From: Rhizobium leguminosarum
Lineage (GTDB): Bacteria; Pseudomonadota; Alphaproteobacteria; Rhizobiales; Rhizobiaceae
NCBI RefSeq assembly: GCF_001679785.1
Contig: NZ_CP016286.1
Span: 3,776,001 to 3,840,000, forward strand
Reading direction: 5' to 3'
Length of the DNA stretch: 64,000 bases
This document shows positions 37,298 to 42,847 of this stretch, piece by piece. Every line of letters starts with the position of its first letter. The first letter of the stretch is position 1. Position numbers and translations under genes: made by a program. A model generated the notes under the pieces. The model had not been told where the DNA came from. It did not search any database and saw only the letters and a list, made by a program, of their open reading frames with translations.

Positions 37298-37470
37298 ACC
37301 CCCCTCTGCCCTGCCGGGCATCTCCCCCACAGGGGGGAGATCACAAGCTGCTTAGCTTTCCCGCCTCGCAACCGGATTGCCGATTTGGATGGCCGATTGC
37401 TTGGGGAAGCGAGAGCATCCAGCCGATCTCCCCCCTTGTGGGGGAGATGCCCGGCAGGGCAGAGGGGGTG
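37298..37470. repeat. Inverted pair of palindromic repeats between ccmA and ccmB
   Basis: Arm 37298-37341 (CCCCTCTGCCCTGCCGGGCA then TCTCCCCCAC) and arm 37426-37470 are near-perfect reverse complements over about 44 bp, separated by about 85 bp. Each arm also folds on itself. The same unit occurs inside ftsY at 42271-42316. It is a mobile-looking rhizobial repeat and could fold into one long hairpin in the ccm mRNA. Confidence 0.88.
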
Positions 37471-41251: not shown

Positions 41252-42847
41252 TCATTGCCCAAGTCCGGCAATGGCATGGGCAAAATCCTCGGCCTCGAAC
41301 GGCTCCAGATCCTCGACGCCCTCGCCGACGCCGATGAAATAGACCGGCAGCTTGTGCTTGGCGGAGATGGCGACGAGAATGCCGCCGCGGGCCGTGCCAT
41401 CGAGCTTGGTCATGATCAGCCCGTTGACACCAGCGACGTTGCGGAAGATCTCGACCTGGCTGAGCGCGTTCTGCCCCGTCGTGGCATCAAGCGTCTGCAG
41501 CACGGTATGCGGCGCATCGGGATCGAGTTTGCCGAGCACGCGGACGATCTTCTCGAGCTCGGCCATCAGCTCTGCCTTGTTCTGCAGGCGGCCGGCGGTA
41601 TCGACGATCAGCACGTCGCATTTTTTTGCCTTTGCCTGTTCGAAGGCATCATAGGCAAGGCCGGCGGCATCGGCGCCGAGCTTGGTGCCGATGAATTCGG
41701 ATTTCGTCCGGTCGGCCCAGATTTTCAGCTGCTCGATCGCCGCCGCCCGGAACGTATCGCCGGCAGCCAGCATCACCTTCAGCCCGGCGCCGGAAAGCTT
41801 TGCCGCAAGCTTGCCGATCGTCGTCGTCTTGCCGGTGCCGTTGACGCCGACGACGAGGATGACATGCGGCTTGTGCGAGAGGTCGAGCTGCAGCGGCTTG
41901 GCGACCGGCTTCAGGACCTTGGCGATTTCCGACGCCATGATCCGGCTGACATCCTCGCCGGTGACATCCTTGCCATAGCGCTCGGAAGCAAGCGTGTCGG
42001 TAACGCGCATGGCGGTCTCGACGCCGAGATCGGCCTGGATCAGCAGATCCTCGAGATCCTGCAGCGTCTCGTCATCGAGCTTGCGCTTGGTGAAGAGCGC
42101 GGTGATCTGGCCGGTCAGCTGCGAAGAGGTGCGTGCAAGGCCGTTGCGCAGGCGCTGGAACCAGCTGAGTTTCGGCTGCAGGACAACGGGCTCCGGCTCG
42201 ACGACCTTCGGGCCGGTGGCAAAGCCTCTGGGGAGGATGGGAGAGCCGGTCTCCGGTTCGGCCGCGGGGTTGCCCCCCTCTGCCCTGCCGGGCATCTCCC
42301 CCACAGGTGGGGAGATTGGCTGGGAGGGCGAATCCAGCCCTGCGTCATCCTCAGTCGGAATCTCTTCCGGCTCGGTCGGAATCTCTTCCGGAGGCTTTTC
42401 GACGCTCTCTTCGAGGTCAGCCGGCTGTTCCAGCGCTGCGGTCTCCCCAGGATCTGTCGCCTCGTGCGGGAGATGTCCCAGAGGGACAGAAGGTGGTTGT
42501 TCCGTAACGGTTTCGGCGGCCGCCTGGCTTTCAGTCTCCGCCTCCGCTGCTGCCTCGGCTTCCAGCAATGAAAGCGGCACGACACCCATATCGCTCAATT
42601 GGTCGGCGGCGGGCAGGATTGCGGATTCGACATCATCGTCAGCAACCGGCGCCTCGACCCAGCCCTCGTCAATATCTGCAGCGGGCCCGCCGGCAGTATC
42701 CATTTCCTCGGCCAGCACTGGATCGTCAGCAACCGGCAGATCTTCGTCGCGCGAACGCGGCTCCAACTCCTTTTCCACGGCCGCAGGCACAGGTTCTTCA
42801 GCCGGCTTGCCGAAGGTAAAGACCTTTTTGATGAAACTGAGCGCCAT
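41252..42847 (-). CDS. ftsY: Signal recognition particle receptor FtsY with repeat-invaded acidic domain
   Basis: A 531-residue GTPase receptor for SRP at the inner membrane. Residues ~1-215 are an acidic, Glu/Ala/Pro-rich A domain; the NG domain follows with P-loop GVNGTGKTTT near 333, DTAGR near 415 and TKLDGTARGG near 480. Two stretches of the A domain are encoded by palindromic repeat DNA: residues 177-192 (ISPPVGEMPGRAEGGN) from 42271-42316 and residues about 117-135 from a degraded copy. A tandem PEEIPTE repeat lies between. The open frame is kept, so the protein is presumably functional. Confidence 0.96.
   Translation of the reverse strand: MALSFIKKVFTFGKPAEEPVPAAVEKELEPRSRDEDLPVADDPVLAEEMDTAGGPAADIDEGWVEAPVADDDVESAILPAADQLSDMGVVPLSLLEAEAAAEAETESQAAAETVTEQPPSVPLGHLPHEATDPGETAALEQPADLEESVEKPPEEIPTEPEEIPTEDDAGLDSPSQPISPPVGEMPGRAEGGNPAAEPETGSPILPRGFATGPKVVEPEPVVLQPKLSWFQRLRNGLARTSSQLTGQITALFTKRKLDDETLQDLEDLLIQADLGVETAMRVTDTLASERYGKDVTGEDVSRIMASEIAKVLKPVAKPLQLDLSHKPHVILVVGVNGTGKTTTIGKLAAKLSGAGLKVMLAAGDTFRAAAIEQLKIWADRTKSEFIGTKLGADAAGLAYDAFEQAKAKKCDVLIVDTAGRLQNKAELMAELEKIVRVLGKLDPDAPHTVLQTLDATTGQNALSQVEIFRNVAGVNGLIMTKLDGTARGGILVAISAKHKLPVYFIGVGEGVEDLEPFEAEDFAHAIAGLGQ
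42271..42316. repeat. Palindromic repeat inside ftsY coding sequence
   Basis: Matches the ccmA-ccmB arm at 37298-37341 with one or two changes over about 44 bp. In frame, it encodes ISPPVGEMPGRAEGGN of the FtsY acidic domain. Confidence 0.9.
42441..42496. repeat. Degraded palindromic repeat inside ftsY, opposite orientation
   Basis: Resembles arm 37426-37470 (GTCTCCCC, then CTCGTGCGGGAGATGTCCC and AGGGACAGAAGGTGG). It encodes about PSVPLGHLPHEATDPGET. Together with 42271-42316 it forms an inverted pair 124 bp apart, like the ccm pair. Confidence 0.6.

What the first reader, a model, noticed from the sequence alone, without database searches (positions are those of the whole stretch)
42271..42496. 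Palindromic intergenic repeat captured in frame in the FtsY acidic domain
The 44-bp unit at 42271-42316 is nearly identical to the arm at 37298-37341 between ccmA and ccmB, but here it is coding and contributes ISPPVGEMPGRAEGGN. A degraded inverted copy at 42441-42496 contributes a second block, giving the same inverted-pair layout as the ccm insert. This suggests recent or ongoing invasion of coding DNA by a rhizobial repeat, tolerated because the domain is unstructured. Repeats inserted in coding regions are known in Rickettsia; a case in FtsY is unfamiliar to me.
Basis: partly seen in the sequence, partly recalled or inferred. Interest (0 to 1): 0.72.

Follow-up and report, generated by a model that had tools for sequence, protein, structure and literature searches.

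The report
Mobile repeat embedded in ftsY gene
A palindromic DNA repeat that is scattered between genes in Rhizobium also sits, read in frame, inside the gene for the essential protein FtsY in most sampled species of the genus, so the insertion is old and often remodelled rather than a fresh oddity of this strain.

Summary
Window 42274-42316 and 42451-42493 are two inverted 43-nt arms of a dispersed rhizobial palindromic element, read in frame in the FtsY acidic domain (ISPPVGEMPGRAEGG; PSVPLGHLPHEATD). The arm core occurs 47 times in this genome, 0 in the reversed control. The reading 'recent invasion' does not fit this site: 103 of 120 same-genus genomes carry at least one arm in ftsY, 87 both, several arm-less ones keep decayed remnants, and 13 of 106 genomes of other genera carry arms. 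The site does turn over: element subfamilies differ between close species, and the own arm 2 is identical over 43 nt to several genomic copies. ftsY is not alone: ribD and two cobN sites hold the element in frame, with losses, scars and some frame-broken copies. Arms are conserved at third codon positions too, and arm divergence hardly tracks host divergence. This is not peptide-level selection; it is element turnover or constraint on the nucleic acid. Best reading: a RIME/MITE-like element captured in a permissive linker, resembling Rickettsia palindromic elements, unusually persistent in ftsY. New variant of a known kind.

The parts
41252..42847 (-). ftsY coding sequence, 531 aa; host gene of the element
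42274..42316 (-). arm 2 of the in-gene element (C-run continues to 42271); encodes ISPPVGEMPGRAEGG; 43 nt identical to other copies in the genome
42317..42450 (-). acidic spacer between the arms; no match to the ccm element's spacer
42451..42493 (-). arm 1 of the in-gene element, degraded here and in near relatives, intact in sister species; encodes PSVPLGHLPHEATD
37298..37470 (.). intergenic copy between ccmA and ccmB with inverted arms (37298-37341 and 37427-37470)

Best explanation
A dispersed, probably non-autonomous palindromic element of rhizobia (about 160-220 bp, two inverted ~43-nt arms, each able to form two small hairpins) entered the acidic-domain part of ftsY before most of the genus Rhizobium radiated, and perhaps more than once in the family. 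It stayed because its arms are mostly free of stop codons in all six frames and because the frame used falls in a permissive linker. Since then the site has turned over: arms decay, are lost, are replaced by other subfamilies, or are homogenised with genomic copies. Selection visibly keeps the overall reading frame of ftsY, not the encoded peptide. Shown: repeat identity, in-frame position, genus-wide presence, subfamily differences, other captured genes. Inferred: that it moved as a transposable unit, that it is tolerated rather than useful, and the number of independent insertions.
For: 47 arm cores in the genome, 0 in control. Arms in ftsY of 103/120 genus genomes and 13/106 of other genera. 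Three arm types at the site (PSVPSGHLPHKGGD, PSVLPDISPTRGEI, PPTLPGVPPTGGG), different types or states between genomes with NG regions 2.5-4.2% apart. On the NG tree presence/absence needs 17 changes (at least 12 forced by starred branches), and the PPTLPG type 12 changes among 13 rows (at least 5 forced), about as scattered as shuffled labels. Own arm 2 identical over 43 nt to other genomic copies. Decayed remnants in arm-less genomes, e.g. PMSPAAEEISARTEED, PPAVEMPDKAEDD. In-frame copies in ribD with deletion scars in relatives and at two cobN linkers. Four of five arm forms tested have no stop in six frames. Arms lack a coding signature: arm 1 divergence by codon position .195/.166/.114, against .014/.007/.188 in the G domain.
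Against: No clean empty site with a target-site duplication was found, so transposition is not demonstrated. Stop-freedom holds for the arms, not for the whole element: the ccm copy is open in only 3 of 6 frames. The arm-1 loop type of ftsY occurs only in ftsY in 7 of the 10 genomes that have it, of 12 searched, so refreshing from the same genome does not explain arm 1. Arm 1 is identical over 43 nt between genera whose 4-fold sites differ by about 0.4, more conservation than simple tolerance predicts. Some captured copies are frame-broken: cobN site 2 in this genome, cobN site 1 in L481 and L488, and ftsY in five assemblies.
Confidence: 0.7

Rival explanations
1. Domesticated nucleic-acid structure: the ftsY copy is kept because the DNA or mRNA hairpin itself does something (for example pauses translation of the acidic domain, affects mRNA stability, or binds a protein), so selection acts on the bases and not on the peptide.
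For: Third codon positions of arm 1 are more conserved (divergence .114) than positions 1 and 2 and than third positions in the other regions of the gene (.188-.390; arm 2 .153). 43/43 identity between genera at 4-fold divergence ~0.4. The two most variable positions of arm 1, 13 and 31, are hairpin-loop positions. The ftsY arm-1 loop type is rarely found elsewhere. The intact element of a sister genome (L044) folds at -132.8 kcal/mol, z -9.5.
Against: The own copy has lost most of this stability (z -2.25, 2 of 200 shuffles as good) and several lineages lost the element. Paired cells exceed shuffles only slightly (840 of 924; shuffled mean 821, maximum 833) with few compensatory changes, and relatedness inflates that. 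Own arm 2 tracks the genomic copies exactly, which fits homogenisation. Requiring 33/43 matches biases towards conservation; the most diverged genus pairs (4 pairs, 4-fold .55) reach arm divergence .30.
Confidence: 0.2
2. Recent, private invasion of ftsY in this strain or species.
For: Own arm 2 is 43/43 identical to several genomic copies. This fact was found on rechecking and raises these odds slightly (0.04 to 0.05).
Against: Present in 103 of 120 genus genomes and in other genera; remnants in others. Arm 2 alone may have been homogenised.
Confidence: 0.05
3. The arm-encoded peptides are functional FtsY motifs kept by protein-level selection.
For: Arm 2 is read in one frame in 101 of 104 arms scored in loci with a recognised start.
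Against: No coding signature in the arms; arm 1 encodes three different peptides; the same peptides appear in ribD and cobN; ribD of L387 changes frame inside the element and keeps only the overall frame.
Confidence: 0.04
4. Low-complexity or chance similarity.
For: Arms are G+C-rich with homopolymer runs.
Against: 0 control hits against 47; Markov maximum 28 of 44.
Confidence: 0.01

Closest known systems
Rickettsia palindromic elements (RPE; Ogata 2000, 2002, not read; known from passages of the review PMC10969869)
   Same: palindromic repeats of ~150 bp found in frame inside protein-coding genes
   Different: other lineage (plant symbiont and soil bacterium), mostly not in genes as far as examined here, one gene occupied genus-wide; RPE sequences were not compared
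RIME (Rhizobium-specific intergenic mosaic elements; Osteras 1995, not held; known from passages of citing papers PMC2573895 and PMC2245857)
   Same: dispersed repeat of rhizobial genomes, called intergenic in the citing papers; palindromic arms (recalled)
   Different: here also inside coding sequence; the published RIME sequence could not be compared
Intragenic REPs (Di Nocera 2013, PMC3733652; section 15 read, other passages seen)
   Same: palindromic units, often as inverted dimers, some inside genes such as uvrA and recB; the authors suggest flexible linkers or loops
   Different: GTAG/CGTC tag not seen at the arm ends read here (by eye, not scanned); no Y1 transposase in this genome; ftsY is not named in the section read
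MITEs
   Same: small, inverted ends, multi-copy
   Different: no cognate transposase and no target-site duplication identified

Membership tests
RIME elements of rhizobia | multi-copy and dispersed in a rhizobial genome | tested here: met
   47 arm cores in G000, 0 in control; near relatives are R. leguminosarum and allies
RIME elements of rhizobia | built of palindromes (recalled) | tested here: met
   inverted arms, each with two inner hairpins
RIME elements of rhizobia | sequence match to the published RIME1 | not testable with these tools
   Osteras 1995 not held
Rickettsia palindromic elements | in-frame presence inside functional protein genes | tested here: met
   ftsY, ribD, cobN by position in open frames of recognised genes; expression not tested
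Rickettsia palindromic elements | sequence homology to an RPE family | not tested
   no RPE sequence was fetched
REP/RAYT system | REP-associated Y1 transposase in the genome | tested here: not met
   PF01797 has 0 matches in G000; control rings in 5 of 14 genomes
MITE | terminal inverted repeats | tested here: met
MITE | target-site duplication at an empty/filled pair | tested here: inconclusive
   ribD and cobN element-free alleles are scars or unalignable at the junction
MITE | cognate autonomous element | tested here: inconclusive
   four arm pairs ~1.5 kb apart hold IS481- or IS256-family sequences rather than a parent with these ends

The most novel reading that the evidence does not exclude
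The ftsY copy is a domesticated nucleic-acid element inside an essential coding sequence: an ftsY-specific hairpin arm conserved base for base, silent sites included, across several genera of the family, with the encoded peptide a by-product.
Probability: 0.2. Interest if true: 0.78.

Novelty: new variant of a known kind. Interest (0 to 1): 0.5.

Why it matters
In-frame palindromic repeats are best known from Rickettsia. Here a common group of plant symbionts carries one in the SRP-receptor gene across most sampled species, with the same element also in ribD and cobN. That gives a large comparative set to ask how mobile repeats feed new protein sequence, why one reading frame prevails, and whether the ftsY copy has acquired a role at the DNA or RNA level.

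Tried and rejected
Parent transposon: arm pairs ~1.5 kb apart looked like an autonomous element, but they hold two unrelated ISs (IS481 and IS256 families). RAYT mobilisation: no Y1 transposase. Rfam: three matches with E up to 1, all below their gathering scores. Peptide function: set aside on codon positions. Compensatory pairing in arm 1: weak. Programmed frameshifting in ftsY: 9 of 120 genus genomes lack a continuous ORF. Read in three frames, 5 change frame in or at an arm (L099, L105, L109, L135, L145; assemblies of 2-5 contigs), 1 has Ns at an arm (L114), 2 have contigs ending in an arm (L117, L120) and 1 ends elsewhere (L130). Sequencing or assembly error at homopolymers cannot be told from real slippage here, so no claim is made. 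AlphaFold2 model with 31 sequences: mean pLDDT 49.6; residues 111-224 are below 50 without secondary structure, but the whole model is poor, so disorder is not proven. Papers: nine searches; no title or abstract start listed reported a repeat in ftsY. I saw passages of five papers and one whole section; Osteras 1995 and Ogata 2002 are not held.

Full report
Observation. ftsY runs from 42847 to 41252 on the minus strand (TIGR00064). Two inverted arms of a repeat lie in its acidic domain: 42274-42316, and a degraded one at 42451-42493 (35 of 43 matches to the FtsY-type arm of relatives). The ccm element (37298-37470) has the same arms. The 27-nt arm core occurs 47 times in this 8.57-Mb genome, 43 with no mismatch to the degenerate pattern, and never in the reversed control. 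Ungapped similarity of the two window arms is 38/44, against a maximum of 28 in 60 Markov windows. Arm 2 is identical over 43 nt to copies at seven or more other sites.

Distribution. FtsY was found in all 120 same-genus genomes searched, this one included, and the 120 ftsY regions were read. 103 of 120 carry at least one arm of 20 bits or more, 87 carry both. For 9 of the 120 no start was recognised, so 1500 bases upstream of the NG motif were scanned instead. Of the 17 without an arm, L120 is cut by a contig end, and several others (for example L064, L073, L078, L083, L085, L089) show decayed remnants in the protein; L113, L115 and L123 show none that I can see. In the family search there were 158 genomes of other genera. 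I read 107 of them (27 loci, 80); L361 was dropped because no NG motif was recognised, and 13 of 106 carry arms, all 13 in loci with a recognised start. Two of these (L158, L162) hold two element copies in tandem, and L311 has three arm copies. Named relatives with arms include R. leguminosarum, R. laguerreae, R. phaseoli, R. tropici and Neorhizobium galegae.

Turnover. Arm 1 comes in three types with different peptides: PSVPSGHLPHKGGD, PSVLPDISPTRGEI and PPTLPGVPPTGGG. Genomes with NG-region divergence of 2.5-4.2% differ in type or presence; in the pair L034/L078 the whole acidic domain differs, so recombination there is possible. On an NG FastTree of 226 rows, presence/absence needs 17 changes, at least 12 forced by starred branches; the PPTLPG type needs 12 changes in 13 rows, at least 5 forced. 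The tree rests on 828 columns, 82 of its 223 inner branches are open, and the type labels came from peptide patterns that left 24 rows as 'other', so these counts are approximate.

Not only ftsY. I read the surroundings of 24 other elements of this genome (not all that one search found) for open frames spanning them. By eye and by HMM, three lie inside recognisable genes: one in ribD, two in cobN; the other spanning frames were not scanned. RibD was searched in 61 genomes and the 30 best loci, own included, were aligned: 10 hold a full or nearly full element, 3 a partial one, and at least 3 (L389, L391, L392) keep only a short end of an arm. CobN was also searched in 61 genomes. At site 1, 28 of the 30 fetched loci were readable: 7 (own included) read both arms in frame, and 3 more hold damaged copies (L481, L487, L488). 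CobN site 2 is filled in frame in G035, G023 and G069, but in this genome the part of cobN beyond it lies in another frame.

Frame. In the in-frame copies at all four sites arm 1 begins in the PS(V/A) frame (PT in the PPTLPG type) and arm 2 reads ISPLVGEM-like; in ftsY 101 of 104 scored arm-2 copies share the frame. If each arm could be read in three frames, four sites sharing one of nine combinations by chance is about (1/9)^3. Exceptions are the frame-broken copies above, L387 in ribD, and 3 of 104 in ftsY. The frame used lacks the Cys and Trp found in the other two frames of most arm forms, though one form (loop CTTCG) has a second frame without them. My peptide-guided search favours this frame, so the count is biased.

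Selection. In 30 genomes (L031-L060) pairwise divergence by codon position is .195/.166/.114 in arm 1 and .051/.080/.153 in arm 2, against .293/.336/.390 in the spacer and .014/.007/.188 in the G domain; the 11 nearest genomes give the same picture (.129/.145/.065 and .026/.052/.013). The arms thus lack a coding signature and are more conserved at third positions than the rest of the gene. Within the genus, mean arm-1 divergence stays at .09-.18 while 4-fold divergence runs from .05 to .50; four pairs at .55 reach .30. Between genera, arm 1 can be identical at 4-fold divergence of .3-.4 (L158 and L164 against L044 and each other). The threshold of 33/43 limits the divergence that can be seen. 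The ftsY arm-1 loop type was found in 10 of 12 genomes searched, and in 7 of those 10 only in ftsY; G179, G080 and G110 hold 2, 3 and 2 further copies. So copying within a genome is not an easy explanation for arm 1, while it fits arm 2 of this genome. Pairing in arm 1 is only slightly above shuffles.

Structure. The intact element of a sister genome (L044) folds as RNA at -132.8 kcal/mol (z -9.5); the own copy gives -99 (z -2.25). The protein model is of low confidence throughout.

Comparison. The phenomenon resembles Rickettsia palindromic elements (review PMC10969869, passages seen) and intragenic REPs (PMC3733652, section 15 read). A RAYT transposase is absent from this genome.

Verdict. 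A real mobile-type repeat, captured in frame in ftsY and present in most of the genus. The claim of a recent first insertion falls; the claim of in-frame capture stands and widens to ribD and cobN. Why arm 1 of the ftsY copy is so conserved at silent sites is open.

Noticed in passing
G000 C1:1906218-1906245 (locus L547), in cobN: The cobN linker contains an exact 28-nt copy, in antisense, of the 3' end of a tRNA-Met gene (C1:3210452-3210479), giving the in-frame peptide VAEEGFEPPT; similar peptides occur in several relatives.
   Followed up: partly
G000 C1:1904407-1904592 (locus L374): Beyond its second element, cobN of this genome continues in another frame, while G023 has one 1390-aa frame with both elements.
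   Followed up: partly
G000 C1:11562-13059, 185052-186549, 4147349-4148856, 4720898-4722390: Copies of the element are interrupted by IS481- and IS256-family insertion sequences, so the elements appear to be IS targets.
   Followed up: partly
L297, L311, L314, L369: FtsY of some other genera holds several repeat-like peptides (such as PSPLRGGSVGEADRGGV and TPSGPSGHLPLKGGEE), suggesting capture of a second palindromic family and growth of the acidic domain by duplication.
   Followed up: no
L475, L477, L484, L489: The cobN linker holds peptides that look like other palindromic repeat families.
   Followed up: no
L513 and G000 C1:4186732 (L010): An element lies just upstream of a lytic-transglycosylase-like gene (named by eye) in two genera, so an apparently intergenic copy may also be old.
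   Followed up: no
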